From the NCBI RefSeq assembly GCF_018129065.1, contig NZ_JAAEDM010000003.1, positions 62,001-126,000 of the forward strand: a stretch of DNA of 64,000 nucleotides. Reading direction: 5' to 3'. This DNA comes from Neoroseomonas soli. GTDB taxonomy: Bacteria; Pseudomonadota; Alphaproteobacteria; Acetobacterales; Acetobacteraceae. Below are positions 29,009 to 45,449 of this stretch, in pieces (position 1 is the first letter of the stretch; each line of letters begins with the position of its first letter). The notes under the pieces are model-generated. The model did no database searches. It had not been told where the DNA came from and saw nothing but the letters and a program-made list of their open reading frames with translations. The position numbers and the translations under genes are program-made.

Positions 29009-29085
29009 GTCCCCGTAGCTCAGCAGGATAGAGCACAGGATTCCTAATCCTGGGGCCGTGAGTTCGAATCTCGCCGGGGACGCCA
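29009..29085 (+). tRNA. tRNA-Arg (anticodon CCT)
   Basis: 77 bases including an encoded CCA. The acceptor stem GTCCCCG / CGGGGAC is perfect. The anticodon arm is CAGGA-TTCCTAA-TCCTG, with the anticodon CCT in the loop centre. The T arm contains GTTCGAATC. Foreign-looking DNA begins directly after it, and tRNA genes are frequent integration sites. I did not find a second copy of its 3' end inside the window. Confidence 0.96.
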
Positions 29086-29448
29086 CTTCCACTTCTCCCA
29101 ACCATGCTCTTGGCCGGATCGCCTCGCCGTACGGCGCAGATAGCCCGCGGTTTTCGTGGACCGGCTGGAGGACGCGAGGGCGGAACGCGGGCTGGATAGA
29201 CCCCTCTCCGGGCCGTTTCTCTCCAAACCTGGCGACTTGGGCGATGACCCAGCCAGACTGAATACCAAGAAAATCCTGGGGCTTCTGAGGCAGAAACGCG
29301 GCGGAGTTGGAGCGACGCATGCCCCTGCGCTCGGTGCTTCAGCAATCCCCCGAAACCACAACCAGTCCAACCCACCGGCCCTACTCGGCCGAGCGCAAGG
29401 GATTTACTCTGGGCCAGCTTACTCTTGGCCAGCATGCCTCCGCTCAGT
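29086..29448. other. Gene-less stretch between tRNA-Arg and the defence operon
   Basis: About 360 bases of mixed composition and lower GC than the chromosome to the left. Open frames that run back over the tRNA are artefacts. I see no intact gene and no clear repeat. It is probably the junction of the inserted element. Confidence 0.4.
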
Positions 29449-31287
29449 CTATGTCGAAGGAGGTGGCCAGATAGCGATGGCATGCTGGAGAAGGCACGTT
29501 CCTCGGGCCTCGATCTTCTCCTCGTTCCAACCGTCCTCGTTATCGTGAACAAGATTGTAATTGAGACGCAATATGCTGTGGCTATGCAGCCCCGCCCGCT
29601 TCGACTTTCCGGCGGGAGATGTCGCAAGCCACGGTGCATTCGAAAGGGACGGATTCAGTTTCTTAGTGACGAGAGTCAGATTGCCAATCGTGTGCAGAAG
29701 TGCATTACGACGATCCTTCGCAGAAATTAGATCCTGGGCAGGCGGCAGCGGCCAGTGGTCTTCCCACGACTGCGGCATTACATGTTCGATTTGCAACTTC
29801 TCGTCGGTCAGGGTGACTGCCTCGCTGAATTGCGAGTGTAGGCGCGCCTCAATCGCGAGAAGCATCATGCGAAGGCGTGGACGGGTCAGCCGCCTGTAGA
29901 GCGGCTCAGACAACCAAGCCTTCTTGAATTCCGCGTCTCCGGGCCAGCGCGAACCCTCAGCCTGCGACTTCCCGAGGAACTGCCGTACGACGGGAGCAAC
30001 AGGATCAGAATTCGGCGTCTGCGCTGCGGCCGCAAGCAGGTCCACGAAGAACGTCGTATACGCGCGCGTATCAAGATCACACACCATTCGGCGAACAAGG
30101 AAAGATTCAAGTGCTTCGACGACGGCCGTGGTGTCACCGTCATTGGTGACTGGCCGTCCAAAGAGCCAGAGGAAGAACGGCGTCAGCGAGACGACGTCCA
30201 TCGCCTTCAAGCGCCGAAGAGAAGTCCCAATGCGCCCGGGCTCATCCGCCTCGTCGACGCGGCGGAACCCGGCTGCATGCTTCCGGATATCCTCCAGCCG
30301 GGCAACGGGATTGGTGGTCAACCCATCGGCAGCACCAATTGGAGGCAGGTCCTCACGTGCTTGTAGATCGAGGAATTCTGAATAGAGGTGAGTCGCCGAT
30401 ACTGGCCGCCGAAGATGGAGCGTCAGGTAGTTGGCGAGGTAGGTATCGATGCGCGCGCGCGCGGCATGGCCACGCCCAGCCTCCTTCCGCCAATAAATGT
30501 GGTCGCTATCGAACGCATGCCACGTCGAAGCGTAGAGCTGTTCGATGTTGCCATGCAGGCCGCGTCTCTCTACCTCGCGAAGCAGCCAGTTCTTCACAAG
30601 GTCGGCGGGCAGCAGAGGCGTGCCACGCGCATTCAGCGTTTCAAAGATGACCTGCGCCTCGTCGGTCTGGTCCAGGTCGAGGACGACGCACTTCAGTCGC
30701 TGATTGAGCGTCACGAAGAGTGCGTCCCGTGCCTGGCCCGGCGAGGGTGCATGGGCTGCCAGCCACGATGAGAGTTGCGCGTAGAAGTAGCGGTAGGCGT
30801 CTGGCAGCAGGCCTCCGACGCCAGTCAAATCGGCGGGTGATGCCGCCTGCATTACAAGTCGGTACGCCTCGCGGTCGACATTCGTAGGCAGAACCTTGAA
30901 CGTCTGCTCCTCATCGACGGCGCCAATCGCGTGATTGCGCAGCATCGAAGCGAGTTGGAGGGCGCGCTGCTGTTCTCCGATCGCGGTAAAGCTGTCTTGG
31001 GCGGCCTTCAACAGGAGCTGCAGCGTCGTGAGTCGCTGCTGCCCATCAATCACGTCACGGCGTTCTGGATACGACTGGGTCGGCACCTTTTCCAGGACGA
31101 TCGAGCCAAGAAAGTGCGGAGGCGGACTGACACCCGCGCGGGCAGCATCTGCAAGTCGGCAGACGTCGGCCCAGAGCGGCTCCCATTGCGCCTTCTCCGT
31201 CCAGACGTATGGCCGCTGGAACAGCGGCACCGTATATCTGCGAGGCAAACCAAAAATGTCCGAGATGGTAGCGTAGCTGGTTTGCAT
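29449..31287 (-). CDS. DUF262 and DUF1524 (HNH) domain protein, GmrSD-like
   Basis: 612 residues. The N-terminal DUF262 domain has PLFQRPYVWTEKAQWEPLW and the ParB/sulfiredoxin-fold motif DVIDGQQRLTTL (residues 78-89), which in the GmrS part of type IV enzymes binds and hydrolyses NTP. The C-terminal DUF1524 domain has the HNH-type sequence LQIEHVMPQSWEDHW, then IGNLTLVTKKLNPSLSN. This domain pair is that of GmrSD-type endonucleases that cut modified phage DNA. It is the last gene of a five-gene minus-strand operon, 60 bases after the GIY-YIG gene, so it may be the effector nuclease of that operon rather than an independent type IV enzyme. Confidence 0.85.
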   Translation of the reverse strand: MQTSYATISDIFGLPRRYTVPLFQRPYVWTEKAQWEPLWADVCRLADAARAGVSPPPHFLGSIVLEKVPTQSYPERRDVIDGQQRLTTLQLLLKAAQDSFTAIGEQQRALQLASMLRNHAIGAVDEEQTFKVLPTNVDREAYRLVMQAASPADLTGVGGLLPDAYRYFYAQLSSWLAAHAPSPGQARDALFVTLNQRLKCVVLDLDQTDEAQVIFETLNARGTPLLPADLVKNWLLREVERRGLHGNIEQLYASTWHAFDSDHIYWRKEAGRGHAARARIDTYLANYLTLHLRRPVSATHLYSEFLDLQAREDLPPIGAADGLTTNPVARLEDIRKHAAGFRRVDEADEPGRIGTSLRRLKAMDVVSLTPFFLWLFGRPVTNDGDTTAVVEALESFLVRRMVCDLDTRAYTTFFVDLLAAAAQTPNSDPVAPVVRQFLGKSQAEGSRWPGDAEFKKAWLSEPLYRRLTRPRLRMMLLAIEARLHSQFSEAVTLTDEKLQIEHVMPQSWEDHWPLPPAQDLISAKDRRNALLHTIGNLTLVTKKLNPSLSNAPWLATSPAGKSKRAGLHSHSILRLNYNLVHDNEDGWNEEKIEARGTCLLQHAIAIWPPPST

Positions 31288-31347
31288 GGGTCTGTATCGT
31301 GATCCGCGTGTCTCTGATGCCTAGCTTCTACCAACTGCCGTGCGGTC

Positions 31348-32538
31348 TCATCGCATTCGCAACCGGGCCGAGGTTGGATCGTACACATAGGCCGTGATCG
31401 TCCCGTCCTTGATGCGTTCCACGGCTTCGTCGATCGCGAACAAGGGTACCAGGAACCATTCACGTGGGGTCACCGGGTTGCCGAAGCGATCCTTGATCTC
31501 GATCTCCAGCCGCGCGGGGCCGAAGACGCGGTGGATCAGGTTCTCAAGCTTCGTCTGACTGATGTTGAACAACTTGTAAGTGGCGACGACTTCGACGTCG
31601 GCCATGAGGAACGTCGGCTGCAGCCTGGCGCCCGCAATGCGCTGCGCGACATCAAGCGTCGTCACGCCAATCTTGTGCACCACCTCGCGGTTTGCCACGA
31701 CAAGAGGGTGATCCGACTTGCTACGCAGGACGTAGATCGTACCGCTGGCCTCATCGCCATGCTCCCGTTCACCAGAGAATAGCGGGCCAGCTACGGGGTC
31801 TGTTATCCGGCGCCCCGCGTCGTCCTTGTTGAGCGCGCGTTGAAGCGAGCGCATCAGCATGTTGCTCTGGGTGCCATTGTCGAAGATCACACGCAGGCGC
31901 GCATCGGTCCGGCCCTGGGGGGTCGTGTAAGTCTCACCTGCCTCGGCCACATAGGCCTTCTGGCCGCCGACGATGAACCACGCTCCTGCCCTGATCTCCG
32001 CCTTGAGTTCGAACGGACGTGTTTGTCGGATGCCGGCTTCGAGGTCCTTCTGCACCTGCTGAAACAGGGGCTTGAAGGTGGCGAAGTCTTCGCACTTCTC
32101 GCGGTTCGCGATCTCTTCGGCCTCTCGCCGTTCCGTCGCTGTCCGCACATGCCGCAGTTCCCTTACGCCGCCTTCTGGCGGCGCATCGACGCCAAGCTGC
32201 GCCAACAGCTCATCATCGTTGACTTCGTCCGAGCCAGCGACCCCTGCGAGCGCGGCGCCCGAGAGCAACTGCTGATGGTCCAGTGGGATGAGCAGCTCCA
32301 GCGCCTCCGGGAGTCCCCGCAGCCGATCGAGGCGAACGGCGTAGATACGTTCGAAGATATCGCGGTCATCCCCGTGCTGCGGCGGGCGGCCATGCTCATC
32401 AACGAAGCGCTGGATTTCTTCGAAACCCGCGATGATCCGCTCCTCGCGTGGGGTACGGGTACCCTGCCGTTTCGTCTCAACCTCGACGCCAAGCTCCTCC
32501 AGGAGGGCGTCATCCTCGTCGGTAAACGCCTTAGCCAC
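31348..32538 (-). CDS. GIY-YIG (T5orf172-type) domain protein
   Basis: 396 residues with a GTG start. Residues 1-180 are charged and helical. The C-terminal part (about 266-350) fits the T5orf172 branch of GIY-YIG nucleases: GTIYVLRS, then HKIGVTTLDVAQRIAGARLQ with R300, and finally KLENLIHRVF with E332. The fold normally cuts DNA with one metal. The gene overlaps the helicase stop by 8 bases, so the two are translationally coupled. The N-terminal part is unassigned. Confidence 0.78.
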   Translation of the reverse strand: MAKAFTDEDDALLEELGVEVETKRQGTRTPREERIIAGFEEIQRFVDEHGRPPQHGDDRDIFERIYAVRLDRLRGLPEALELLIPLDHQQLLSGAALAGVAGSDEVNDDELLAQLGVDAPPEGGVRELRHVRTATERREAEEIANREKCEDFATFKPLFQQVQKDLEAGIRQTRPFELKAEIRAGAWFIVGGQKAYVAEAGETYTTPQGRTDARLRVIFDNGTQSNMLMRSLQRALNKDDAGRRITDPVAGPLFSGEREHGDEASGTIYVLRSKSDHPLVVANREVVHKIGVTTLDVAQRIAGARLQPTFLMADVEVVATYKLFNISQTKLENLIHRVFGPARLEIEIKDRFGNPVTPREWFLVPLFAIDEAVERIKDGTITAYVYDPTSARLRMR

Positions 32539-34585
32539 GCGCCGCCTCCGCCTTCATGCGGGCAAGGAAGGCCACGCCTTCTGCCATTCGCTTTTCCCAC
32601 GCATCCGGCGAGGTGATCGACGGAAGGCGGCCGCGCTCCTGCTTGAACTTCAGGGCCCGCTTCGCCAGGTCGCGCGCCTCCTCCGGCGTCATCGTCACCC
32701 GCTTCGCGTTGATGACGGCCTGGACCTCCTTCAGGCTCTCCTCGCTCATGGTCTTCGCGAGGATGGAGTATGCCTCTCCGAAGGGGTTGATGCTGTCGAT
32801 GAGGTCGATGTCGAGGTCGCGGACATTCATGGCAATGAACTTCCGAACGCCATCGACGAAAGCCGTGTTGGCGGTCTTTTCGCCGTCATCGTCGCTGCTG
32901 CCGGAGGCCACCTCTTTCGCCTTCTGGGTCAGGTTGAGGGCGGCGATCGCGTGCTGCCGCACGGCTTCCTGGTCCTCATCGTCTAACTCGGGGTAGCGAT
33001 CCTTGATGATCTTGCCCATGCGGACTTGGGTCAGCTCCTCAGGCACCATCTCCGGGTCAAACAGGCCGCGCTCGACTGCGGTCTTGTCCTGCACGAAGGC
33101 CGCAATGACCTCGTTCAGGTCCTGCTTGCAGATTCGGGTGGCCTCCTCGCTCTTAGGCTCGGCCAGCCCCTTTATCTCGATCTCGAACTTGCCCTGTTCC
33201 TGGTTGAAGCCGACGTTGCACTTGTTGGCGTCGTATCCGCCCTCGCCATAGTCGAAGCCCGGTGTGGGGCCGCTATCGACAGCCTTCGGCTTGAACTCGA
33301 AACGCGGGGCGAGGACCTGCTCCATCAGCAGGCTCGCGGCGATCGCCTTCAGCGTGTCGTTGACCGCCTCTGTCACGGCCTGCTCGGAGGCATCCGGCTC
33401 CGCAATCAGGTTGGTGAAGCGAGCGCGGGTCTTGCCGGGCGCGTCCCGTGTGGCGCGGCCGATGATCTGGACGATCTCAGTCAGGCTCGATCGGTAGCCG
33501 ACTGTCAGGGCGTGCTCACACCAGATCCAGTCGAACCCCTCCTTCGCCATACCGAGCGCGATGATGATGTCCACATGATCGCGGTTGTTCTTCTGGGCGG
33601 GGTCCTTCAGCGCAGCCGAGACACGGTCCCGCTTCGTCGGCTCGTCATCCACCAGGTCGGCGATGCGCAGCAGGCGGCCTTCCGGTGTGCGCACAAGCTG
33701 GAAGCCCGTTGTGGGGTCCAGGCCCTCCCACGTCCCGAGCTCCTCGATGATGTGCTCGACCTCTCGGTGTTTGTCCTTCGTGCTCTCCCGCGAGTTGACG
33801 TTCGGAATATGGACGATGGTCTTCTCGGCCGGGTCTAGCACCTTGAGGATGTCGTCGCTGTAGGCGCCCGAGTAGAAGAAGTAGCCAATATCTAGCTTCT
33901 TCAGGTGCTCATAGCCGTTGAGCTGCTCATAGTAGGTGTAGGTGACGGTTTCGAACTTGGCTTCGTCCTGCGGCGCGAGCACGGCTTCGGCGTCGCCGCG
34001 AAAGTAGGAGCCGGTCATCGCCACGACGTGGACCCGGTCGCGGACGATGAACTGGCCGAGATGCAGGCCGAGCTTGTTGTCGGGGTTGGCGGAGACGTGG
34101 TGGAACTCGTCCACCGCGATCAGGCGATCGTCGAAGGCCTCCACGCCGAACCGCTCGACGGCAAAGCGAAAGGTGGCATGCGTGCACACCAGCACCTTGT
34201 CGGTGCTCTGGAGGAAGGCACCGACCGAGTTGACCTTGCCGCCATCCGTGCCCGGGGCGTTGCAGAGGTTCCACTTCGGGGCGACCTGCCAGTCGGCCCA
34301 GAAGCCAAACTTCGTCAGCGGCTCATCGGCAAAGCTGGACCCGATCGACTTCTCAGGCACCACGATGATTGCCTGCCGGAGGCCCTGGTTGTTGAGCTTG
34401 TCGAGGGCGATGAACATCAGCGCGCGGCTCTTTCCCGAGGCGGGCGGCGACTTGATCAGCAGGTACTGTTCGCCCCGCTTCTCGTAGGCGCGCTCCTGCA
34501 TCGGACGCATGCCGAGAGCATTGGCCTTGGTCGAGCCTCCATTGCGGCTGTAGGAGACGGAGACAGACGGGACGGATGTCGTCAT
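32531..34585 (-). CDS. SF2 DEAD/DEAH-type helicase (restriction-like)
   Basis: 684 residues from the ATG at 34585, which overlaps the previous stop (ATGA). Walker A is SPPASGKSR (46-54) and motif II is DEFH (159-162). The C-terminal RecA fold has IIALGMAKEGFDWIWCEHAL and QIIGRATRDAPGK as motifs V and VI. The last 250 residues are acidic and helical with no known domain. It resembles ResIII-type translocases of type I and ISP restriction enzymes, but here the methyltransferase is a separate gene. In the operon it probably provides the ATP-driven translocation step. Confidence 0.85.
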   Translation of the reverse strand: MTTSVPSVSVSYSRNGGSTKANALGMRPMQERAYEKRGEQYLLIKSPPASGKSRALMFIALDKLNNQGLRQAIIVVPEKSIGSSFADEPLTKFGFWADWQVAPKWNLCNAPGTDGGKVNSVGAFLQSTDKVLVCTHATFRFAVERFGVEAFDDRLIAVDEFHHVSANPDNKLGLHLGQFIVRDRVHVVAMTGSYFRGDAEAVLAPQDEAKFETVTYTYYEQLNGYEHLKKLDIGYFFYSGAYSDDILKVLDPAEKTIVHIPNVNSRESTKDKHREVEHIIEELGTWEGLDPTTGFQLVRTPEGRLLRIADLVDDEPTKRDRVSAALKDPAQKNNRDHVDIIIALGMAKEGFDWIWCEHALTVGYRSSLTEIVQIIGRATRDAPGKTRARFTNLIAEPDASEQAVTEAVNDTLKAIAASLLMEQVLAPRFEFKPKAVDSGPTPGFDYGEGGYDANKCNVGFNQEQGKFEIEIKGLAEPKSEEATRICKQDLNEVIAAFVQDKTAVERGLFDPEMVPEELTQVRMGKIIKDRYPELDDEDQEAVRQHAIAALNLTQKAKEVASGSSDDDGEKTANTAFVDGVRKFIAMNVRDLDIDLIDSINPFGEAYSILAKTMSEESLKEVQAVINAKRVTMTPEEARDLAKRALKFKQERGRLPSITSPDAWEKRMAEGVAFLARMKAEAARG

Positions 34586-34995
34586 GCAGGCAGCCTGTAT
34601 TCGGAGAGGTAGGTAATGGCCCAGGCGGGCGGGCTGGGCCAACTTCGCTGACCATGCTGATGCCAGGTGACGCTGTCGGCCCCAATCAGGCCGCTCCGCT
34701 CAAGGTGGGTCACCAGGCCGTCGTGGTCGTACAGATACAGGTCGTCGCCGTGCAGGAAGGCGATGTGGACGCCTTTGCCGAGGTACTTGCGATCGATCAC
34801 CAGTCGCCCTTTGAGCTGCACCTTCAGGAAGGTTTCGCCGTCAATGTGGATTGCGATGAAGTCCGCCCCCTGCCAATCGTCCGTTAGGCGGATGCTATTG
34901 AAGCCGTAGTCAGCAAGCCGCGCAGCGACCTTCTGAAAGTTGTAGTTCTCCTTCTGACGCGAGTTCAGGGCGTCATAGGCGATGCGGCCGTACAT
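34582..34995 (-). CDS. Small PD-(D/E)XK-like protein
   Basis: 137 residues, beginning one base after the methyltransferase stop and overlapping the helicase start by 4 bases. The central part reads DDWQGADFIAIHIDGETFLKVQLKGRLVID. GADFIA followed by VQLKGR fits the D…QxK pattern of PD-(D/E)XK nucleases with a Q in place of E. The family is not one I can name. Its place between methyltransferase and helicase suggests it supplies the cleavage domain that the methyltransferase lacks. The assignment is by motif only. Confidence 0.55.
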   Translation of the reverse strand: MYGRIAYDALNSRQKENYNFQKVAARLADYGFNSIRLTDDWQGADFIAIHIDGETFLKVQLKGRLVIDRKYLGKGVHIAFLHGDDLYLYDHDGLVTHLERSGLIGADSVTWHQHGQRSWPSPPAWAITYLSEYRLPA

Positions 34996-34996
34996 A

Positions 34997-37747
34997 TCAG
35001 GCCGCCACCTTCTTGGTGATTTTGGTGTAGAGCTCGAAAAGCTTCTCCAGGCGCTCAGTGTCGTTCTTGAAACGACGGCCGATGTAGATGCGCTCCAGCA
35101 CCTCGTCATTGCGATCGTGGGCGGCGCGGAGGTCGACAGGCATGGCATCCGGGTCGTAGAGGTCGGCGATGGTCGCCGGGAAATGAGCCTCTCTGGCCAG
35201 AAGGATGTCCTCGGCACAGACGGAAAGGTCGACCTTGTTTTTCTCAGTAAGAGTCGGGACGGGAAAGGTGTTCCAACCCAAAGTGTTAGAGTAGCGCAAC
35301 CGGGTTTCGAGCTTCCCACAAACGGCCATTGCCCACACAAGGTGCAAACGGGATGCGACGAGTGCAAGGTTCCACATTTCCGCATCATACATTGCGAACA
35401 AGAGATCGCTCGGTATTGCCCGACCATTGAGAAGGTCGACCGGGATGTATGGCCTACGTTCAGAAGACACCTTGGCGATCGCGATACAATGCTCTGTCGA
35501 GCGTCCTGCAATTTGCACAAACCGATGCGGTTTCTGCGCAAATTCGCGGGTGGACTGAGCGTCACTCTTTAGGCGGCTCTCCTTCACTCGCTCCAAGACG
35601 CCCGAAAGGAAAGGGTGCTCCTCGGCTAGCTTTGCATCATCATCATCAATCCAGATGCACCACCTAAGCTTCCCATTGATCATTTCTTCGGACCCATAGT
35701 AAGGACGGATGTAAGCCGCGACATCAGGGTACTCAATCAGAGTTTGGCGGCGCTCATCTCCGCCGAGAATTAGGTTTCCGCCGTCCCGAGGCATATTGCC
35801 AAATAGCATCAGCGCAGCACTTGAGATTGGGCGCCGCATCTGTTCAATGATGATGTTTGGTCCTGCAACCAGATAAGCATTAATGTAATTTACTTTTCGT
35901 TCGATCTGATTTCCGAGCTCGTCTGTATAAAACAATCTCCTGGTCGGCGGGGGCGATGCCGAGATGCCTACGATGCATACGGTCACGCCGGCGTTGTTGC
36001 TGGCCAGGTTCGCCCACCGAAAGGAGGTGTGCGCAAACGCTATCTCACTGCCTGTTTGGAATATCGCAGGCCATAAAATGGGCACTTGGAGTCCCTGGCA
36101 TATCGAATTCGTGGTTACGAAGGCTGATGTCGCCCGTGTGTGCCTCCCGTACTCGGCCGCCTTCATCATCCAGCCCGCAACATAGTCGACTGACTTCCAG
36201 CCTTTTGTGCGCGGAGAGAAGATTTTCTCAAGTTCCTCCTTCTGTTCAGTAGATTGCCATTTACTGCCAAGATAAGGCGGGTTTCCGCAGATGTACGTCT
36301 CCCCACCTTGATTGTCGAAATCAATTTGGGCTTGGTCCATCGGCGTGCTGAAGAGGTCGTCCGCTTTCAGCTTCACGCCAGTCCCCGTCGGTGGGCAGAT
36401 GCTTAGCCAGTCTAGCGTTAGCGCATTGCCGCAGGTGATCCAGTTCTCCGATCGCAACGGAAGGAAATCCTGTAGCGCCTCTTTCTGGCCGCGGTAGACC
36501 ACGTCGCACTGATACTCGGCGATGATGAGCGCGAGGCGTGCGATCTCGGCCGGGAAGTCGCGGATCTCAATCCCTCGGAAGTTGGTGACAGGGATTTCCG
36601 TCCGCCGGTCCGCCTCGCCGCGGCGTTTGTTGATCTCAGCCTCGATCGCCCGCATCTCTTTGTAGGCGATCACCAGGAAATTGCCCGAGCCGCAGGCGGG
36701 GTCGAAGACCCTGATCCTTGCCATGCGGTTCCGCAGGTTCAGCAGCTTGCGGGGGTTCCCCCCCGCCTCTTCAAGCTTCTCCCGCAGATCGTCGAGGAAC
36801 AGCGGGTTCAGCACCTTTAGGATGTTCGGCACGCTCGTGTAGTGCATGCCGAGCGCGCCGCGCTCCTCATCCTCGGCGACGGCCTGGATCATTGACCCGA
36901 AGATGTCCGGGTTGATCCTCTTCCAGTCCAGGCTGCCGATATGCAGCAGGTAGGATCGCGCGATCCTGCTGAAGCGTGGAACGTCCGGGCTGCCGGAGAA
37001 CAGGCCGCCATTCACGTAGGGGAACTGATCCGCCCAACGGGGAATGCCGGCTGCCGCCCGGTCGGCGATCTTGACGTTCATCGCCCGGAAGATGGTGCTG
37101 ATCACCTCATGCGTGTTCGAGGAGTCCGAGGCGCTCATCGTCTGCACCGTCGAGGTGAAGAGCAGCGGCCGGCAGAAGATGTCGGTGTCCTCCGCGAAGA
37201 AGCAGAAGATCAGCCGTGCCATGAAGTGATTCATGTCCGGCCGCCGGGCCGCCGTGCCCCACTCCGGGTTCTCCTTGAGCAGCTGCACGTAGAGCCGGTT
37301 TAGACGGCCCGTTGCCTTGATGTCGAAAGAGCTCTCCCGGATCTGCTTGACGGTCGTGATGCCCGCCAGCGGGAGAAAGAAGCCGAAGTGGTCTGGGAAC
37401 TCGCGGTAGGTGCAGGCGACCGTCTCGCCGCTCGCCAGATCCTCGGCCTCGAAGCTGTCGCCGTCCGTGGCGAGGATAAACTTCGCCTTCCCGCGCGCCG
37501 TCGCTGGGCTCGCCTTCAGGGCTTGCAGCGTTGCCGTGACCTGGCCGGGGTCGCAGGTCGCGATGTGGATGTTGTTGGTCTGCAAGACGCCGCCGAGGTC
37601 GGACTTGTTCGATGCCCCGCTGCGGAGCCGCTTCAGCGTGGTGTCCTTGTTTCCGAAGGCCGCCAGGAAGGCATAGGGAAACTCCGCCCGATCGAAGGGC
37701 TGCTCAGCCAGCGCAGAGACGGCTTCTTCGATTTCAACTGCGTTCAT
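34997..37747 (-). CDS. MmeI-like N6-adenine DNA methyltransferase
   Basis: 916 residues from the ATG at 37747. The methyltransferase core has motif I DPACGSGNF (349-357) and the catalytic NPPY (489-492). The middle (about 170-340) fits the helical spacer of MmeI-type proteins and the region from 600 onward fits their target-recognition and C-terminal parts. The N-terminal 130 residues have the family's FGFFLPLAGI, but I see no D…ExK nuclease motif, so it should methylate but not cut. It heads an operon with a small nuclease-like protein, a helicase and two more nucleases. GC is visibly lower than the flanking chromosome. Confidence 0.88.
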   Translation of the reverse strand: MNAVEIEEAVSALAEQPFDRAEFPYAFLAAFGNKDTTLKRLRSGASNKSDLGGVLQTNNIHIATCDPGQVTATLQALKASPATARGKAKFILATDGDSFEAEDLASGETVACTYREFPDHFGFFLPLAGITTVKQIRESSFDIKATGRLNRLYVQLLKENPEWGTAARRPDMNHFMARLIFCFFAEDTDIFCRPLLFTSTVQTMSASDSSNTHEVISTIFRAMNVKIADRAAAGIPRWADQFPYVNGGLFSGSPDVPRFSRIARSYLLHIGSLDWKRINPDIFGSMIQAVAEDEERGALGMHYTSVPNILKVLNPLFLDDLREKLEEAGGNPRKLLNLRNRMARIRVFDPACGSGNFLVIAYKEMRAIEAEINKRRGEADRRTEIPVTNFRGIEIRDFPAEIARLALIIAEYQCDVVYRGQKEALQDFLPLRSENWITCGNALTLDWLSICPPTGTGVKLKADDLFSTPMDQAQIDFDNQGGETYICGNPPYLGSKWQSTEQKEELEKIFSPRTKGWKSVDYVAGWMMKAAEYGRHTRATSAFVTTNSICQGLQVPILWPAIFQTGSEIAFAHTSFRWANLASNNAGVTVCIVGISASPPPTRRLFYTDELGNQIERKVNYINAYLVAGPNIIIEQMRRPISSAALMLFGNMPRDGGNLILGGDERRQTLIEYPDVAAYIRPYYGSEEMINGKLRWCIWIDDDDAKLAEEHPFLSGVLERVKESRLKSDAQSTREFAQKPHRFVQIAGRSTEHCIAIAKVSSERRPYIPVDLLNGRAIPSDLLFAMYDAEMWNLALVASRLHLVWAMAVCGKLETRLRYSNTLGWNTFPVPTLTEKNKVDLSVCAEDILLAREAHFPATIADLYDPDAMPVDLRAAHDRNDEVLERIYIGRRFKNDTERLEKLFELYTKITKKVAA

Positions 37748-38479: not shown

Positions 38480-38887
38480 CTACCGCTGGCGTTGCGCGCA
38501 AAGGGCCGACTGCCGCTGTTCCCACCCCGTCGGCGAACCGGCCAGCAGCGTTGGCAGCCCCAACCCCTCCGGCTGCCGCCCATCCAGCACCGCCTCGACG
38601 ATGTCCGGCGCCAGCAAGGTCAGCTTCAGCAGGCGCGCGACATAGGACCGATCTACCCCCTCGGCGGCGGCCAGTTCGCGGATCGACGCGTACCGCCCGT
38701 CCTCCAGCATCCGCCGCCACCGGAACGCCCGCGCCAGCGCCTTCAGCAGGGCTGGGTCGCCGCTGGTGGTCTCCACGCCCGGTCTGTCCTGGCCGGCCCG
38801 CACCGGCGCCCCGTCCGGCCCGAAGATCTGCTTCCGTCCGCCGCGGCGCCGGATGGTCATCGGCACCACCACCGTAACGCTGGTCAT
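38480..38887 (-). CDS. Helix-turn-helix protein of the recombinase operon
   Basis: 135 residues. Residues 60-115 form a ParB/KorB-like helix-turn-helix (YASIRELAAAEGVDRSYVARLLKLTLLAPDIVEAVLDG). The start overlaps the recombinase stop (ATGA). This small DNA-binding partner commonly follows serine recombinases of this type in alphaproteobacterial prophages. It may act as an accessory or directionality factor, which is inferred from position. Confidence 0.78.
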   Translation of the reverse strand: MTSVTVVVPMTIRRRGGRKQIFGPDGAPVRAGQDRPGVETTSGDPALLKALARAFRWRRMLEDGRYASIRELAAAEGVDRSYVARLLKLTLLAPDIVEAVLDGRQPEGLGLPTLLAGSPTGWEQRQSALCAQRQR

Positions 38888-40218
38888 GCTGCGATCGCCT
38901 CCCGCGGCGGCTTCGCCGCCATGTCCCGCGCCAGCCCGGCGAGCCCCTCCAGGTTCAGCCGAATCTCGGCGCCCGCCTCGGTGACCATCACGCGCTCGAC
39001 CAGCAGCCGCACGATGCGCTCCTGCTCGCCGGGGAATAGTTCGTCCCAGAGCGGATCCAGCCGCTCGAGCGCGTCACGGACCTCTGCCTCGGTCAGATCG
39101 GGCGCCTCCTCCCGCGCCGCACGCCACGTGCCGACGATGACCTCCGGCTGGCGCAGCAGCGCGCGGACCTGCGCCAGCACCAGCCCCTCGATCTCCCCGG
39201 CCGGCAGGCGCCGGAGCGGCGCGTCGTCCGCCCCGCCCTGCAGCACCGCCTGGCTGACGTAGTACCGGTAGAGCCGCCCCTTCTTCCGCGTGTGGGTCGG
39301 CGACATCGCCCGCCCGTCTGGCCCGAACAGCAGGCCGCGCAGCAGTGCCGGCGCGGTGGCGCGGTTCTTCGCCGCGCGGGCGCGCGGGCTCTCGACCATG
39401 ATGGCGTGCACCCGGTCCCACAGCTCCCGCGAGATGATGGCGGCGTGCTCACCGGGATAGGACGTCCCCTTGTGCACCGCCTCGCCGAGAAACGTCCGGT
39501 TCACCAGCAGCTTGTAGACGGCCCCCTTGTCGAAGGGCCGGCCGGTCTTGGTGACGAGGCCCTCGGCGCGGAGGACGGGCAGCAGCCGCGTCGCGGATCC
39601 GATTTCGGCAAAGCCCTCGAACACCCGCCGCACCGTCGCGGCGCCGGCCTCGTCCACCACCAGCTTGCGGTTCTCGACCCGATAGCCGAGCGGCACCGGC
39701 CCGCCCATCCACATGCCCCGCGCGCGCGAGGCGGCGATCTTGTCGCGTACGCGCTCGCCGATGATCTCCCTTTCATACTGCGCGAAGCTCAGCAGGATGT
39801 TCAGCGTGAGCCGGCCCATGCTGGTGGTGGTATTAAAGCTCTGAGTGACAGCAACAAACGTGACCTCGTTGTCGTCGAAGGTCTGCACCAGCTTGGCGAA
39901 GTCCATCAGCGAGCGGGACAGGCGATCAATTTTATAACAGACGATGACGTCAATCAGGCCGGCCTCAATATCGGCCAGCAATCGCTTCAATGCGGGGCGA
40001 TCGAGCGTGCCGCCCGACACGCCGCCATCATCGTAGCGATCGTGCACCAGCACCCAGCCCTCGGAGCGCTGCGACGAGATGAAGGCCTCGCACGCGGCCC
40101 GCTGCGCGTCGAGCGAGTTGAACTCCTTCTCCAGCCCCTCGTCAGTGGACTTCCGCGTGTAGACGGCGCAGCGGAGCTTGCGGATCTTCGCCGGCATGGC
40201 GGTGTCGCGGCGGGTCAT
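38884..40218 (-). CDS. Large serine recombinase (prophage integrase)
   Basis: 444 residues from the ATG that overlaps the upstream stop. The catalytic resolvase domain opens with RCAVYTRKSTDEGLEKEFNS, with nucleophile S24, and has VCYKIDRLSRSLMDF. A recombinase domain (about 190-290) and a basic segment with RKKGRLYRYYVS follow; the usual zinc-ribbon cysteines of that last region are missing. It should integrate and excise the prophage. Serine integrases do not usually choose tRNA genes, so its link with the tRNA-Arg 8.8 kb to the left is uncertain. Confidence 0.92.
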   Translation of the reverse strand: MTRRDTAMPAKIRKLRCAVYTRKSTDEGLEKEFNSLDAQRAACEAFISSQRSEGWVLVHDRYDDGGVSGGTLDRPALKRLLADIEAGLIDVIVCYKIDRLSRSLMDFAKLVQTFDDNEVTFVAVTQSFNTTTSMGRLTLNILLSFAQYEREIIGERVRDKIAASRARGMWMGGPVPLGYRVENRKLVVDEAGAATVRRVFEGFAEIGSATRLLPVLRAEGLVTKTGRPFDKGAVYKLLVNRTFLGEAVHKGTSYPGEHAAIISRELWDRVHAIMVESPRARAAKNRATAPALLRGLLFGPDGRAMSPTHTRKKGRLYRYYVSQAVLQGGADDAPLRRLPAGEIEGLVLAQVRALLRQPEVIVGTWRAAREEAPDLTEAEVRDALERLDPLWDELFPGEQERIVRLLVERVMVTEAGAEIRLNLEGLAGLARDMAAKPPREAIAA

Positions 40219-40706
40219 GCGCCGGGCTTCCGCAAGCCAAAGAACACCCATCCGTTCCAGCGCGTGCCGGTGATGGCGCGGGCGATGGCGGAGAGCGACT
40301 GGTAGGGACGGCCCTGGCATTCGTATCCGTCGCGGGTAACGGTGACGACGTGCTCGACGCCCTGGTACTCGCGGATCAGCCGCGTGCCGGCGATCGGGCG
40401 CTGCTCGTGGCGGATGCGGCGCAGGGTGATATTCCGGCCGTCAAACTGCTCGCCCAACGCCTCCAGCCGCGCCAGCGTCTCAGGCTTCAGGCCGCCATAG
40501 GCGAGCTCCTGGATGCGGTATGCGAGGCGGCTCTCCAGGAAGCGCCGATTATAGGGCGGCGGCTCGGTCCCGAAGAGGCTGCGCCATTCGGCCTTCAACT
40601 CGCCGATCGGCATGCCCGGCAGCGCGGCGAGGCGCGCCGGCACGTCCGGCTTCGGGATGGCGGTTACTATCGTCGTCGAGGTGCTGTTTGGCTTCGCGCG
40701 GGTCAT
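40215..40706 (-). CDS. DUF2924 family protein
   Basis: 163 residues. LPGMPIGELKAEWRSLFGTEPPPYNRRFLESRLAYRIQELAYGG is the DUF2924 signature, and the C-terminus has GTRLIREYQGVEHVVTV and the basic GRPYQSLSAIARAITGTRWNGWVFFGL, a DNA-binding-like module. It sits directly before a serine recombinase in many alphaproteobacterial prophages, as here, with 4-base overlaps on both sides. A role in recombination is inferred from this constant association. Confidence 0.85.
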   Translation of the reverse strand: MTRAKPNSTSTTIVTAIPKPDVPARLAALPGMPIGELKAEWRSLFGTEPPPYNRRFLESRLAYRIQELAYGGLKPETLARLEALGEQFDGRNITLRRIRHEQRPIAGTRLIREYQGVEHVVTVTRDGYECQGRPYQSLSAIARAITGTRWNGWVFFGLRKPGA

Positions 40707-40909
40707 GCGTCTCCCTTTCTCCTGGGGTTCGCACGAAGGCGCTGGCCGGGGACGGAGTGTAGGCGAACCACGCTCTCACCGTCGGCCGCGGGCGCGACTT
40801 CCTCGGCAGCGCGCCTCCTCAGCCGCAGCAGGCCGCGGGCAAGGAGGTCGCAGACCTCGCGGAGATGGGGCGGGAGATGGGCGTTGATGGGACGGTCGTC
40901 ACGCTGCAT
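40703..40909 (-). CDS. Small protein heading the recombinase operon
   Basis: 68 residues (MQRDDRPINAHLPPHLREVCDLLARGLLRLRRR…). It is helical, with many Arg. The ATG and the overlap of its stop with the DUF2924 start (ATGA) indicate a real gene, and I recall the same arrangement in related prophages. No function can be given. Confidence 0.65.
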   Translation of the reverse strand: MQRDDRPINAHLPPHLREVCDLLARGLLRLRRRAAEEVAPAADGESVVRLHSVPGQRLRANPRRKGDA

Positions 40910-40953
40910 GGCGTGACAATACGAATCGTTGATCGCTGCGGGGAGTGCTGATT

Positions 40954-40964
40954 TGTAGCGCTAC
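40954..40964. promoter_or_regulatory. GTAGCGCTAC palindrome, candidate repressor site
   Basis: TGTAGCGCTAC lies 45 bases upstream of the recombinase operon. TGTAGCGCT also occurs at 42589-42597 in front of the prophage repressor gene, so one regulator could bind both. Confidence 0.35.
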
Positions 40965-40985
40965 GCCACGCTCTGGCCAGCCGCC

Positions 40986-41708
40986 TCAGGCGACCGAGAC
41001 ATCCGGCGGTAGGATCACCACCCGTGCACCGATCGGAACGCGCTGGTAGAGGTCGATGATGTCCTGGTTGATCAGCCGGACGCAGCCCGCCGAAGCCATG
41101 GTGCCGATGGTCCAGGGCTCGACCGTGCCGTGCAGGCGGTAATAGGTGTCGACGCCGGCCTGGTAGAGGTAGAGCGCCCGTGCGCCGAGGGGATTGCGGC
41201 CGCCGCCCGGCACGCCGTCGCGGAACGGGCCGTAACGCTGCGGATCGCGCCGGACCATGTCGGGCGTCGGGCGCCAATTCGGCCAGGCGGCCTTGCGCTC
41301 GACATAGGCTTCGCCCGTGAGGTTGAAGGCCTCGTCCCGGCCAACGGCGATGCCGTAGCGCATGGCGCGGCGGCCCTCGAGGGCCAGGTAGGCGTAGCGG
41401 GCGGCCGTATCGACGACGATGGTCCCCGGCTCGTCGTCGCGCGAATAGGCAACCTCGCGACGGAGGAACCGCGGATCGATGCGCCGAAGGTTCACCGCGG
41501 GGATCCAAAAGCGGTCGGTGGTGATCGCCCCGTAGATCCGACGGTAGTCGGGCTCAGCCGCCGGCACGGCCGCGGGCGGCGGCTCCGGCGCGACGGCCTC
41601 AGCCTGCGGCGCTGACGGGTGCCGCGACGGCTGCGGCGCCTCGGACGACGCACACGCCGCGAGCAGGCCAGGCAGGCTGGCGACAAGGCTCCTTCGGCTA
41701 ACCCTCAT
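40986..41708 (-). CDS. L,D-transpeptidase (YkuD/ErfK), lipoprotein
   Basis: 240 residues. The N-terminus MRVSRRSLVASLPGLLAACA holds a lipobox LAAC with C19, so it should be lipidated at the envelope. A Pro/Ala linker follows. The YkuD domain has the catalytic H193 (RLHGTVEPW) and C209 in IGTMASAGCVRLINQD. Such enzymes make 3-3 cross-links or attach proteins to peptidoglycan. It lies between the integrase operon and the phage repressor, so it is element cargo or a lysogenic conversion gene rather than part of the chromosomal core. Confidence 0.88.
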   Translation of the reverse strand: MRVSRRSLVASLPGLLAACASSEAPQPSRHPSAPQAEAVAPEPPPAAVPAAEPDYRRIYGAITTDRFWIPAVNLRRIDPRFLRREVAYSRDDEPGTIVVDTAARYAYLALEGRRAMRYGIAVGRDEAFNLTGEAYVERKAAWPNWRPTPDMVRRDPQRYGPFRDGVPGGGRNPLGARALYLYQAGVDTYYRLHGTVEPWTIGTMASAGCVRLINQDIIDLYQRVPIGARVVILPPDVSVA

Positions 41709-41799
41709 CGATCGTCCGGAATCCCCTGGGCGGCATCGAGCCTGCTTGGACTAAGTCAACGATACCGGCGGCGCCGATGTCCACAGGAGCGGCCGTGGC

Positions 41800-42576
41800 C
41801 TAAGCGCCGACCTGCCGCCCGAGCCAAATCACCCGCCCGATGACATGGACGTCCTCAGCGCTCAGGCCGCGCTGCGGCTGATAGGCGGGGTTGTCCGACA
41901 GCACGCTGAGCCGCGGCGGCCGCCCCAGTTCCACCTGCACCCGCTTCACCTGCAGGCCGTTGCCGGTGCGGATGACGTAGATCCCGTCCTTGTCCCCCGG
42001 CTGGTTCTGCCGGAAGTCCACCAGCACCGTGTCGCCGGTGCGAAGCGTCGGCTCCATGGAGTCCCCATCCACCGAGATCACCGCCAGCTGGTCGAGCGGC
42101 GCGGTGGTGACCGTGCGGACCCACTCCTCCCGGAAGGCGATGCGATAGACGACCGCCTCCCGGTCGATCTCCTGGCCAGGACCGGCTGAGGCGCGGGCGT
42201 CATAGACGGGCAGCAGCGCCCAGTTGTCGCCGCCCATGCTGATCACCTCGGCCCCGACCGGGCCGGTGTAGGAGGTGGGCGGCCGGGGCGGCGTCGCCTT
42301 GCGTCGCACCCGCTGGCCGAGCACCGCCGCGGCTTCCTCCGGGGTGTTGATGGCGATGCCCGCGTCGCCGGCCTCCTTGCCGAACAGCAGCATCTGCCAG
42401 GTGATGCCGAGGGGCACGGCGAGCTCGCGCGCCGCCCGCGCCGTGAGCGGCCGACGGCCACTCTCATAGGCGCGGTAGGTCGCCTCCGGCACGCCGGCGA
42501 GACGGGCCAATTCGGCCCCTGAATCAATGCCCTTGGCTTCGCGAAAGCGGCGGAGGCGGTCTGCGGTGGATTCCAT
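41800..42576 (-). CDS. Prophage repressor, XRE helix-turn-helix with S24 peptidase domain
   Basis: 258 residues from MESTADRLRRFREAKG. The N-terminal helix-turn-helix is SGAELARLAGVPEATYRAYESGRRPL. The C-terminal S24 domain has catalytic S173 in SVDGDSMEPTL and K211 in GLQVKRVQ, with a possible Ala-Gly cleavage bond at 131-132 (ASAGPG). It should keep lysogeny and be inactivated by RecA-stimulated self-cleavage after DNA damage. It faces the Cro-like gene across a 100-base operator region. The longer frame upstream is not used. Confidence 0.92.
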   Translation of the reverse strand: MESTADRLRRFREAKGIDSGAELARLAGVPEATYRAYESGRRPLTARAARELAVPLGITWQMLLFGKEAGDAGIAINTPEEAAAVLGQRVRRKATPPRPPTSYTGPVGAEVISMGGDNWALLPVYDARASAGPGQEIDREAVVYRIAFREEWVRTVTTAPLDQLAVISVDGDSMEPTLRTGDTVLVDFRQNQPGDKDGIYVIRTGNGLQVKRVQVELGRPPRLSVLSDNPAYQPQRGLSAEDVHVIGRVIWLGRQVGA

Positions 42577-42676
42577 GGCGCTGCAATATGTAGCGCTTTC
42601 TTCGCGATTGTGTAGCAGGTTTCTGCATATACAAACAGTCTTGTTTGCGTGCCGCGACGGAGCGTATCTGTCCGGC
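42577..42676. promoter_or_regulatory. Prophage operator region between repressor and Cro-like gene
   Basis: This AT-richer gap holds the dyad CAAACA-GTCT-TGTTTG (42632-42647) and TGTAGC twice (42589-42594 within TGTAGCGCT, and 42611-42616 within TGTAGCAGG). It must contain the divergent promoters for lysogenic and early genes. Which site binds which regulator cannot be told. Confidence 0.55.
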
Positions 42677-42970
42677 ATGCCCGACCGCATCGCCCTCCGC
42701 AAACGGCCCGCCGAACCGGCACGCCCGGCGCTGTCGCCCGCGCTCCCGCCGCCCAAGAGCTTCGCCGAGGTGATCGCCCTCTGGCCGAACGCCAGCGACC
42801 TCGCCGCCCTGCTCGACGTCGAGGCGGTCACCGTCCGCGCCTGGCGTCGCCGCGGGATCCCCGCCCGCTACTGGGCCGCGGTCGCCGAGGCGGCGCGTTT
42901 CAGTGGCCGTCCGGTCGATGAACGCCTGCTCGCTGAACTCGGCTCCCTCCGGAGGTATCGCCATGCATGA
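42677..42970 (+). CDS. Cro-like helix-turn-helix protein (carph-isopro type)
   Basis: 97 residues. KSFAEVIALWPNASDLAALLDVEAVTVRAWRRRGIPARYWAAV matches the small Cro-like family with the xPSDLA…V.VW..RGIP.RYW pattern. It is divergent from the S24 repressor and opens the early operon, as expected for a Cro. The next gene begins inside its last codons. Confidence 0.8.
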   Translation: MPDRIALRKRPAEPARPALSPALPPPKSFAEVIALWPNASDLAALLDVEAVTVRAWRRRGIPARYWAAVAEAARFSGRPVDERLLAELGSLRRYRHA

Positions 42971-43328
42971 TCGCCTCACGCATCCCGCAGCGTCTGCTGC
43001 AGCGCCCCTGCCTGACACCGTGCTCCCACTCGGCGCGGCGCCCTTCATCGCCTGGGCGATCAATGCGCTGCCGGGCGATCGCGCCATCTACTGGCAGGGC
43101 CATATCGCCCGCGACGCCTGGCCGGTGATGGGTCGGCTGCGGCCGCGCGACTGCCGGGCGCTGACCGAGACCGCCCGTCTCGCCCTGCGCCTGGCCGAGG
43201 ATGGCTACCTCCGCCTGGTGCAGCACCGGCTCGGGACGCACGACTACGCCTATGTCGCCATCGCGCGCCGCATGTCGCCGGCGCGGCGCGCGCGGCGGCT
43301 GACGCTCCCCATCGCGGAAGCCGCGTGA
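42963..43328 (+). CDS. Hypothetical phage early protein
   Basis: 121 residues (MHDRLTHPAASAAAP…). The C-terminal half is a helical, winged-helix-like stretch (RPRDCRALTETARLALRLAEDGYLRLVQHRLGTHDYAYVAIARR), ending very basic. GGAGG lies upstream, inside the Cro-like gene. Both neighbours overlap it. No family recognised. Confidence 0.65.
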   Translation: MHDRLTHPAASAAAPLPDTVLPLGAAPFIAWAINALPGDRAIYWQGHIARDAWPVMGRLRPRDCRALTETARLALRLAEDGYLRLVQHRLGTHDYAYVAIARRMSPARRARRLTLPIAEAA

Positions 43329-43777
43329 TGGGCAAGCCGTCCCGCGACAAGGGCCTGCGCCGCGAGCGCGCCATCGTCGAACTGCACGTGAAGTGCGGCA
43401 TCCCCGCCGAGCGCGTCCCGCTCTCCGGCGCGTCGCACTATCGCGGCAACGGCGCCGACATCGACATCTACGCCCGCGGCGCGACCGGGCCGCCGCTGAC
43501 CGCCGAGGTCAAGGCGCGCGGTGACGGCAACGGCTTCAAGACGCTGCTGCGCTGGCTCGGCTCCCATGACGCGCTGTTCCTCTGGCAGGACCGCCAGGCG
43601 CCGATCGTCGTCATCCCCATGCATGTCTGGCTTGAGGTGCTCGGCCTGATCAACCGTACGGCGGGCGGCACCGGCAGCATCCAGCAGGAGCCTGACGCGG
43701 ACACGCCGCGGCAGCAGGCCCGCGCGGCGGCCGAGCATGGCCGTCCCCATGACGCTATCGCGGAGCGTGCGGCATGA
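43328..43777 (+). CDS. PD-(D/E)XK nuclease, Holliday-junction-resolvase-like
   Basis: 149 residues, beginning at the ATG that overlaps the previous stop. The motif set E…GADIDIYA…TAEVKARG is that of Hjc-like or VRR-NUC-like nucleases: an early Glu in RRERAIVELH, then Asp, then ExK. RWLGSHDALFLWQDRQAPIVVIP follows, as in resolvases. It probably processes branched DNA in phage replication or recombination. The exact type is not settled. Confidence 0.72.
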   Translation: MGKPSRDKGLRRERAIVELHVKCGIPAERVPLSGASHYRGNGADIDIYARGATGPPLTAEVKARGDGNGFKTLLRWLGSHDALFLWQDRQAPIVVIPMHVWLEVLGLINRTAGGTGSIQQEPDADTPRQQARAAAEHGRPHDAIAERAA

Positions 43778-44535: not shown

Positions 44536-44659
44536 CCTCCGCCCCACGCCGCGGCGGCGCTGGCGACCGTCCCTGATCCCGCTCGAGTTGCTGGCGGCGA
44601 CGCTGCACTGGGCCGGGCTGTGGGCGCTCGCCCTGCTCGTCCTGTCGCTGATCGCCTGA
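44525..44659 (+). CDS. Small single-helix membrane protein
   Basis: 44 residues (MATDLRPTPRRRWRPSLIPL…). It is basic at the front, with one hydrophobic helix (LLAATLHWAGLWALALLVLSLIA). It overlaps the end of the exonuclease gene by 11 bases. Function unknown. Confidence 0.5.
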   Translation: MATDLRPTPRRRWRPSLIPLELLAATLHWAGLWALALLVLSLIA

Positions 44660-44722
44660 CGCGTCCGGCGCTGCGCGCCCGCCGCACCTGGCGCGCGTCA
44701 CCCCCACCGAGAGGATAGGCCC

Positions 44723-45445: not shown

Positions 45446-45449
45446 GCCG

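What the first reader, a model, noticed from the sequence alone, without database searches (positions are those of the whole stretch)
29449..37747. Compact five-gene operon of a methyltransferase, a small nuclease-like protein, a helicase, a GIY-YIG protein and a DUF262/HNH protein
Seen: five minus-strand genes with 1- to 8-base overlaps or short gaps, lower GC than the chromosome, next to a tRNA and a prophage. Known: MmeI-like methyltransferases, ResIII-like helicases, GIY-YIG, PD-(D/E)XK and GmrSD-type DUF262/DUF1524 proteins all occur in restriction and anti-phage systems. Inference: they act as one system in which methylation marks self DNA, the helicase translocates, and one or more of three nucleases cuts. 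I do not recognise this order as type I, ISP, BREX, DISARM or Dnd.
Basis: partly seen in the sequence, partly recalled or inferred. Interest (0 to 1): 0.78.

Follow-up and report, generated by a model that had tools for sequence, protein, structure and literature searches.

The report
DnmA-YeeB-YeeC restriction operon with swappable inserts
The five genes are a known but poorly understood restriction-like trio (DNA methylase, helicase, nuclease) plus one small nuclease-like gene in a slot that other bacteria fill with other genes, and one probably independent defence gene behind it.

Summary
The five genes are real and lie where reported, but they are not one new five-part system. Three (MmeI-type methyltransferase, DEAD/ResIII helicase, GIY-YIG gene) are the published DnmA-YeeB-YeeC cluster. 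Around 80 helicase relatives in genomes, the methyltransferase lies upstream in 76 and the GIY-YIG gene downstream in 79; the misses are at contig ends. Relatives of this DUF262/DUF1524 protein were found beside none of 80 genome, 43 viral and 18 plasmid loci; a profile search found other DUF262 proteins at 3 of the 141, in other positions. It is best read as a neighbouring type IV-like gene.

The small protein has a predicted PD-(D/E)XK fold and sits in a variable slot between methyltransferase and helicase: empty in 28 of 76 genome loci, holding ORFs of about 15 families in 48. Synonymous divergence between close relatives is mosaic: low in the methyltransferase N-terminal half, near saturation across its target-recognition region, low again through helicase and GIY-YIG. 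The trio therefore looks like a fixed translocase-nuclease backbone with exchangeable specificity and accessory parts. My searches found no description of the slot. Activity was not tested.

The parts
34997..37747 (-). DnmA/YeeA-type adenine methyltransferase: MmeI_N, helical spacer, MTase domain (NPPY at residues 489-492), TRD (629-833), C-terminal domain; the N-terminal nuclease motif appears degenerate
   Evidence: Pfam; PADLOC REase_MTase_IIG 956 bits; MmeI structure 5hr4 E 7.7e-139; motif columns in 76 aligned sequences
35198..36397 (-). Variable zone 1: methyltransferase residues about 451-850 (end of catalytic domain plus TRD), synonymous divergence near saturation between close relatives
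   Evidence: sliding pS in 13 pairs of relatives; projected onto the window, not measured in it
34582..34995 (-). Small protein (137 aa) with predicted PD-(D/E)XK fold, in the accessory slot; D45, Q60, K62 conserved
   Evidence: alignment A3; AlphaFold model pLDDT 82.5; Foldseek to I-Ssp6803I and Hjc
34582..34996 (-). Variable zone 2: accessory slot between methyltransferase stop and helicase start
32531..34585 (-). YeeB-type superfamily 2 DEAD/ResIII helicase, backbone gene
   Evidence: Pfam; alignment A1; genome scan
31348..32538 (-). YeeC-type GIY-YIG (T5orf172/MUG113) protein, backbone gene; Y269, K289, G291, R300, E332 conserved in both alignments, H336 in the first and nearly so in the second
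   Evidence: Pfam; alignments A2 and A5
29449..31287 (-). DUF262/DUF1524 GmrSD-family protein (VIDGQQR motif present translation); tail neighbour, probably an independent type IV-like gene
   Evidence: Pfam; PADLOC Orf5 and mREase_IV; neighbourhood counts
29009..29085 (+). tRNA-Arg(CCT), border at which the acquired DNA begins
   Evidence: ARAGORN; relatives

Best explanation
This is a DnmA-YeeB-YeeC operon, a type I-like restriction-modification system built from an MmeI-family methyltransferase whose own nuclease motif appears lost, an SF2 helicase and a separate GIY-YIG nuclease. Proposed action (inferred): the methyltransferase reads its site through the TRD and methylates an adenine on self DNA; on unmodified DNA it licenses the helicase, which translocates and delivers the GIY-YIG nuclease to cut. 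Shown here by comparison: helicase, GIY-YIG gene and the methyltransferase N-terminal half form a backbone, while two zones are replaced between close relatives, the TRD region and a slot just before the helicase. In this window the slot holds a small PD-(D/E)XK-fold protein, read as an optional accessory nuclease. The DUF262/DUF1524 gene is read as an independent modification-dependent (GmrSD-like) enzyme in a tail position where other loci often carry a same-strand gene, several of them defence genes.
For: Trio synteny: methyltransferase 76 and GIY-YIG 79 of 80 genome loci, 34 and 40 of 43 viral contigs. Published cluster and type I-like proposal: passages of PMC7261158 and PMC9973331. MmeI homology. 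In 76 aligned methyltransferases (genome, plasmid and window together) position 56 is Q in 72 and position 58 is N in 62, while the NPP of NPPY is N 76, P 76, P 73. Helicase and GIY-YIG residues conserved. Slot: of 76 genome loci with a methyltransferase, 48 filled and 28 empty (recounted); families. Mosaic divergence: mean pS 0.32-0.46 over methyltransferase residues 1-400, 0.78-0.80 over 451-800, 0.23-0.40 over the helicase, in 13 pairs. Homology of pairs with unlike slots begins at the helicase start, and pieces of helicase start lie inside the slots of L065, L004 and L079. The window's DUF262 protein beside the trio: 0 of 80, 0 of 43, 0 of 18 by tblastn.
Against: In B. [quoted passage not shown] only Vibrio crassostreae deletions of dnmA and yeeB are reported, second-hand in PMC9973331, to raise sensitivity to some phages. 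No activity was measured here. The YeeC model was poor (pTM 0.37) and the 50 PDB matches listed show no GIY-YIG enzyme; its nuclease call rests on Pfam and residues. Slot content is partly inherited with the backbone: the nearest helicase neighbour shares the slot class in 24 of 61 loci against 9.8 expected. DUF262-type proteins do adjoin the trio in 3 of 141 loci, and two relatives of this DUF262 protein follow other methyltransferase operons (L105, L133), so a functional link is not excluded. In single pairs the left edge of the divergent zone varies widely (for example L058/L089 is already high from residue 151).
Confidence: 0.72

Rival explanations
1. All five genes form one integrated defence system with three nucleases acting together.
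For: Tight packing, same strand, shared low GC; DUF262-type proteins adjoin the trio in 3 of 141 loci at other positions; relatives of this DUF262 protein follow two other methyltransferase operons (L105, L133).
Against: No tblastn match to the window's DUF262 protein beside the trio in 80 genome, 43 viral and 18 plasmid loci; small gene in 8 of 80, 1 of 43 and 0 of 18; slot and tail carry unrelated families elsewhere.
Confidence: 0.13
2. The trio is a decayed restriction relic whose methyltransferase survives as a gene regulator, as proposed for B. subtilis.
For: Negative phage and transformation tests in B. subtilis (passages).
Against: Here the three reading frames and the motifs checked are intact; in the 18 non-identical close pairs listed helicase pN is 0.004-0.042 against pS 0.07-0.55, which means purifying selection on the helicase; the genes also lie on plasmids and viral contigs.
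Confidence: 0.15
3. The mosaic pattern is only a difference in rate: the TRD evolves fast and the helicase slowly, without exchange.
For: Median TRD identity to the window is 0.44 against 0.82 for the helicase; alignment error in the TRD can inflate pS there.
Against: Synonymous sites, not only amino acids, jump from about 0.35-0.46 to about 0.79 inside one gene, and near-identical backbones carry non-homologous slot genes (of 15 non-identical pairs with helicase identity of at least 95%, 8 differ in slot content, 3 share part, 4 are the same; pairs share members).
Confidence: 0.1

Closest known systems
DnmA(YeeA)-YeeB-YeeC of Bacillus subtilis and Vibrio crassostreae (PMC7261158, PMC9973331; passages seen)
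   Same: Families and order of methyltransferase, helicase and GIY-YIG gene; MmeI-like methyltransferase reported there to lack the N-terminal nuclease motif
   Different: Here an extra gene sits between methyltransferase and helicase and a GmrSD gene follows; the passages I read mention only an 'uncharacterized protein family' found throughout the dnmA neighbourhood, perhaps another member in some bacteria
Type I restriction operons with linked ORFs (rlo and mlo genes; PrrC in EcoprrI)
   Same: Accessory genes embedded in the operon (passages of PMC5183652 and PMC3874165); RhuM with a 4-base overlap after subunit M, and AlbA_2 between subunits S and R, on two plasmids picked because the listing named restriction genes there; both families also occupy this slot
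   Different: No HsdS or HsdR here; specificity lies in the methyltransferase and the nuclease is a separate GIY-YIG protein
MmeI, type IIL/IIG restriction-modification enzyme
   Same: Full-length methyltransferase architecture
   Different: MmeI cuts by itself; this branch appears to have lost the motif and has separate helicase and nuclease genes
GmrSD/BrxU type IV enzymes
   Same: DUF262 and DUF1524 domains, DGQQR pocket motif (PMC10952713 passages)
   Different: Applies only to the tail gene, which is not a conserved part of the trio

Membership tests
DnmA-YeeB-YeeC cluster | MmeI-like methyltransferase, SF2 helicase and T5orf172/GIY-YIG gene in this order on one strand | tested here: met
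   synteny in relatives. Not compared directly with the B. subtilis sequences
DnmA-YeeB-YeeC cluster | Methyltransferase lacks the N-terminal PD-ExK motif of MmeI | tested here: inconclusive
   In 76 aligned sequences the region reads D50 ... Q56-x-N58 (Q 72, N 62 of 76), but the alignment to MmeI starts only at residue 83 and the place of the MmeI motif is recalled
DnmA-YeeB-YeeC cluster | Site-specific m6A methylation | not testable with these tools
   Needs a methylome
Type I restriction-modification | HsdM, HsdS and HsdR subunits | tested here: not met
   No HsdS or HsdR among the Pfam matches or the PADLOC rows shown for the five proteins (PADLOC lists capped at 25 of 31 for two proteins)
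Type IIL/IIG (MmeI-like) | Methyltransferase and endonuclease in one polypeptide | tested here: inconclusive
   Methyltransferase architecture met; nuclease motif appears lost
BREX, DISARM, Dnd | Own marker genes (PglX with PglZ; drmA, drmB; dnd genes) | tested here: not met
   Five genes only: the methyltransferase matches DrmMI at 102.6 bits and PglX at up to 26 bits against 956 for type IIG; NCBIfam BREX and dnd scores of 19-29 bits lie far below cut-offs of 400-900. The rest of the window was not scanned for these markers
GmrSD type IV enzyme (tail gene) | DUF262 and DUF1524 domains | tested here: met
   PF03235 117.8 bits and PF07510 91 bits, both above cut-off. Substrate not testable here
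PD-(D/E)XK nuclease (small gene) | Core fold plus D ... (D/E/Q)-x-K residues | tested here: met
   Predicted model and Foldseek; D45 and K62 invariant and Q60 nearly so in 17 sequences. No Pfam match; activity not tested

The most novel reading that the evidence does not exclude
The small PD-(D/E)XK protein, whose best solved match is the homing endonuclease I-Ssp6803I, is a mobile nuclease that cuts slots lacking it and so drives replacement of slot contents; the slot would be a homing-type exchange site that lets one fixed translocase-nuclease backbone collect accessory genes, with the recurring boundary at the helicase start as the repair edge.
Probability: 0.1. Interest if true: 0.75.

Novelty: new variant of a known kind. 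Interest (0 to 1): 0.52.

Why it matters
It remains barely characterised, and the PADLOC profiles clearly name only its methyltransferase, as type IIG. A slot that holds many different accessory genes gives a ready list of candidate partners, and the slot families shared with type I operons suggest a common accessory pool for restriction systems. The mosaic makes a direct test possible: one backbone with swapped TRDs and slot genes.

Tried and rejected
Considered and rejected: one five-gene system; BREX, DISARM and Dnd. In the 2026 BREX survey PMC12839542 the terms GIY-YIG, T5orf172, MmeI, YeeB, DUF262 and RhuM do not occur in the main text. Repeats from the tRNA end in the window: none found. 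The YeeC fold gave pTM 0.37 and no useful PDB match. PDB sequence search gave nothing for the helicase and, for the DUF262 protein, four acetyltransferase hits and one weak DUF262 hit. Phage records: 3 with a helicase match, none over 80% of it. Viral relatives of the small protein: 1 of 27 pattern stretches. Literature on a slot in this cluster: searches; I saw listings with the beginnings of abstracts, several capped (20 of 104, 20 of 26, 20 of 7,003, 10 of 601 and 12 of 198), so absence from print is not proven. The papers cited as Makarova 2011 and Morgan 2009 are not held.

Limits. The 80 genome loci are the best 80 of 555 relatives, all 79-96% identical in the helicase, so the counts describe this branch. 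The 18 plasmid loci were picked by me from 264 records. The 13 pS pairs share members and were picked for close helicases; the low pS of the methyltransferase N-terminal half was not selected for. Dropped before the domain and distance comparisons: loci whose gene match was in several pieces, covered under 93% or contained stops; 62 of 81 (80 genome loci and the window) remained for the three-gene comparison, and 61, with L091 removed as a duplicate of L054. Slot and tail ORFs were called mechanically; about 15 slot families leaves out two of 17 clusters (both in L092) as probably not genes. The tail count is an upper bound: the ORF called in L003 conflicts with an annotated integrase on the other strand. 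Of the DUF262 relatives fetched, neighbours were looked at in L105, L106, L107, L133 and, for one neighbour, L135; L136 was only listed as ORFs, and L134 and L137-L140 were not followed up.

Changed on checking: I had written that the small gene shares a base with the methyltransferase stop (there is one base between), that DrmMI was a weak match, and that no DUF262 protein adjoins the trio elsewhere; the last led to and moved the five-gene rival from 0.10 to 0.13.

Full report
What is there. Five minus-strand ORFs lie at the stated place with tight spacing; only the last gene, DUF262, stands apart, by 60 bases. GC is 60.7% against about 70% on either side. The cluster begins just beyond the 3' end of tRNA-Arg(CCT). 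The stretch left of and including the tRNA matches over most of its length in 33 of 35 same-genus genomes, the window's own counted, and in the tRNA part alone in 2. In 19 relatives fetched, homology stops at the tRNA end in 16 (one by contig end) and 210-236 bases further on in 3. A serine recombinase, a CI-like repressor and a primase follow on the far side.

What the genes are. Pfam gives the complete MmeI set for the methyltransferase, DEAD/ResIII for the helicase, T5orf172/MUG113 for the fourth gene and GmrSD_N/GmrSD_C for the fifth; the small gene has no match. PADLOC names the methyltransferase as type IIG and gives no match for the small gene or the GIY-YIG gene. The best solved match for the methyltransferase is MmeI, E 7.7e-139.

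The known core. Passages of PMC9973331 and PMC7261158 describe dnmA-yeeB-yeeC: a methyltransferase related to MmeI without the nuclease motif, followed by a helicase and a T5orf172/GIY-YIG gene, suggested earlier to be type I-like, inactive in the B. subtilis tests made, but reported, second-hand, to affect phage sensitivity in Vibrio crassostreae. Our three genes match in family and order.

How general. The methyltransferase lies upstream on the same strand in 76 and GIY-YIG downstream in 79. The 4 without a methyltransferase have at most 1.1 kb of contig upstream, and the one without GIY-YIG is cut at its contig end. In 43 viral contigs the figures are 34 and 40; the 9 without a methyltransferase have under 1 kb of contig upstream; of the 3 without GIY-YIG one has 96 bases left and two have a truncated helicase match. 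tblastn with the window's DUF262 protein finds nothing in the 80 genome, 18 plasmid and 43 viral loci. A profile made from 13 DUF262 proteins finds 3 in these 141 loci: L026 in the slot, and L061 and L162 just upstream of the methyltransferase, the last two being GmrSD_N-AlbA_2 fusions. None lies behind GIY-YIG. The small protein is found in 8 of 80 genome loci, 1 of 43 viral contigs and 0 of the 18 plasmid loci; a direct plasmid search gave 7 records, two of them Paracoccus plasmids with methyltransferase or helicase annotation under the match.

The slot. Of the 76 genome loci with a methyltransferase, the distance to the helicase is under 120 bases in 28; in 48 it is larger and holds ORFs that cluster into about 15 families once two doubtful ORFs of L092 are left out. 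Pfam names: AlbA_2 with HATPase, YhcG/DUF1016, RhuM, BrnT, DUF559, PIN, GmrSD_N, and weak T5orf172 and NgoFVII matches; other families have no name. In viral contigs the gap exceeds 150 bases in 11 of 34. Two of these families also sit inside type I operons: RhuM after subunit M with a 4-base overlap (L185) and AlbA_2 between subunits S and R (L186); these two were picked because the listings named restriction genes there. Linked ORFs in type I loci are in print (PMC5183652 passage; PrrC in a PMC3874165 passage). I did not find such a slot described for dnmA-yeeB-yeeC (searches and their limits under Tried and rejected).

A mosaic backbone. In 13 pairs with similar helicases (pairs share members), the mean synonymous difference per 50-codon block is 0.32-0.46 over methyltransferase residues 1-400, 0.55 at 401-450, 0.78-0.80 over 451-800, 0.71 and 0.62 in the last two blocks, 0.23-0.40 along the helicase and 0.30-0.39 along GIY-YIG. 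The left edge varies by pair. In some pairs (L065/L079 0.14, L060/L073 0.28) the last methyltransferase block returns to a low value, so TRD and slot can be exchanged separately. In 9 pairs with unlike slots, one of them the window and L021, DNA identity is about 10-50% upstream of the helicase, 37-57% in the 30-base block over its start, 60-87% over codons 7-16 and 73-97% over codons 17-26. This marks where shared sequence begins; on its own it does not prove a crossover there. In L065/L079, which share the second slot gene family, shared sequence begins further upstream. L065, L004 and L079 hold a 37-residue piece of helicase start at the junction of their two slot genes (73%, 46% and 46% identical to the window), which looks like the scar of one front inserted before an older one. 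Of 15 non-identical pairs with helicase identity of at least 95%, slot content is the same in 4, partly shared in 3 and different in 8. Against a free-for-all, the nearest helicase neighbour shares the slot class in 24 of 61 loci, more than the 9.8 expected, so slots are inherited for a while.

The small gene. Nine sequences gave a model with pLDDT 82.5 and pTM 0.76. The best PDB matches are chains of the homing endonuclease I-Ssp6803I (E 9e-5, TM about 0.5, but rmsd 6.8) and archaeal Hjc resolvases (E 2e-3 and up, TM 0.4-0.5, mostly rmsd near 3): a PD-(D/E)XK fold, with D45 and K62 invariant in 17 sequences. Away from the trio it lies 10 bases after a type ISP enzyme (L104), beside a DNA topoisomerase subunit gene (L129) and in places without a relative of this methyltransferase (L102, L103, L130, L131). 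Two copies stand in tandem in the slot of L132. It may be an accessory nuclease or a mobile one; I cannot decide.

The tail. Of 93 loci (plasmid, genome, window) with at least 700 bases after GIY-YIG, 35 including the window have a same-strand ORF within 120 bases; this is an upper bound, since ORFs were called mechanically. Ten of these ORFs were scanned with Pfam: AAA_13, reverse transcriptase (two), HATPase, SIR2, AAA_15 with OLD-type TOPRIM, MazG_C and SMEK, and none named in two. Of four scanned with PADLOC, three are named (DRT3a, SIR2, PDC-S06) and one is not. The DUF262 gene fits this pattern of tail neighbours. Two of its relatives follow other methyltransferase operons (L105; L133); L106 and L107 do not directly follow one, and the one neighbour of L135 scanned is an enolase-like enzyme.

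How it works. Inferred, not shown: site methylation by DnmA, translocation by YeeB from unmodified sites, cutting by YeeC. The apparent loss of the MmeI nuclease motif and the intact helicase and GIY-YIG residues fit this. The exchange zones would let a lineage change specificity and accessory genes without losing the engine. Whether the window's copy is active is unknown.

Noticed in passing
L065, L004, L079 (slot between methyltransferase and helicase): A 37-residue piece resembling the helicase N-terminus lies at the junction of the two slot genes, apparently a scar of an earlier exchange.
   Followed up: partly
L061:4913-7150 and L162:2545-4788: DUF262-AlbA_2 fusion proteins directly upstream of the methyltransferase of the trio, joining two domain types that elsewhere occur as separate slot or tail genes.
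   Followed up: partly
L132:9413-10572: Two tandem copies of the small PD-(D/E)XK gene in one slot; the match of the second is stretched over extra residues.
   Followed up: no
L034, L036, L038 (after GIY-YIG): ORFs of one cluster, a reverse transcriptase (DRT3a by PADLOC, scanned for L034 only), overlap the GIY-YIG stop by 8 bases in three genomes.
   Followed up: partly
L133:2960-11997: Run of a large Eco57I/DrmMI-like methyltransferase, a protein with LmuB matches (E 2e-17), a DUF262 relative and an HNH_2 protein.
   Followed up: partly
L105:1-7838: A DUF262 relative, annotated as two ORFs, directly follows a DUF3780/DUF1156/PLD anti-phage operon.
   Followed up: no
L101 (Thioclava plasmid p6): Remnant locus: the methyltransferase match lacks its middle, the small gene remains and the helicase match is partial. 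Described only.
   Followed up: no
window 32531-34585 and plasmid relatives: Several plasmid relatives of the helicase are annotated 'pseudomurein-binding repeat-containing protein', apparently from a marginal PMBR match (25.3 bits against a cut-off of 24.9): a misleading label.
   Followed up: no
window 29090-29321: This stretch after the tRNA is shared with 3 of 19 fetched same-genus relatives, perhaps related elements at the same tRNA.
   Followed up: no
G000 contig C53, 29411-29853: A second, partial copy (90% identical) of the region at the end of the hydrolase gene and the tRNA start exists elsewhere in the same genome.
   Followed up: no
window 38480-47696: Serine recombinase with a 135-aa partner, CI-like repressor and primase, consistent with a prophage next to the operon.
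   Followed up: partly
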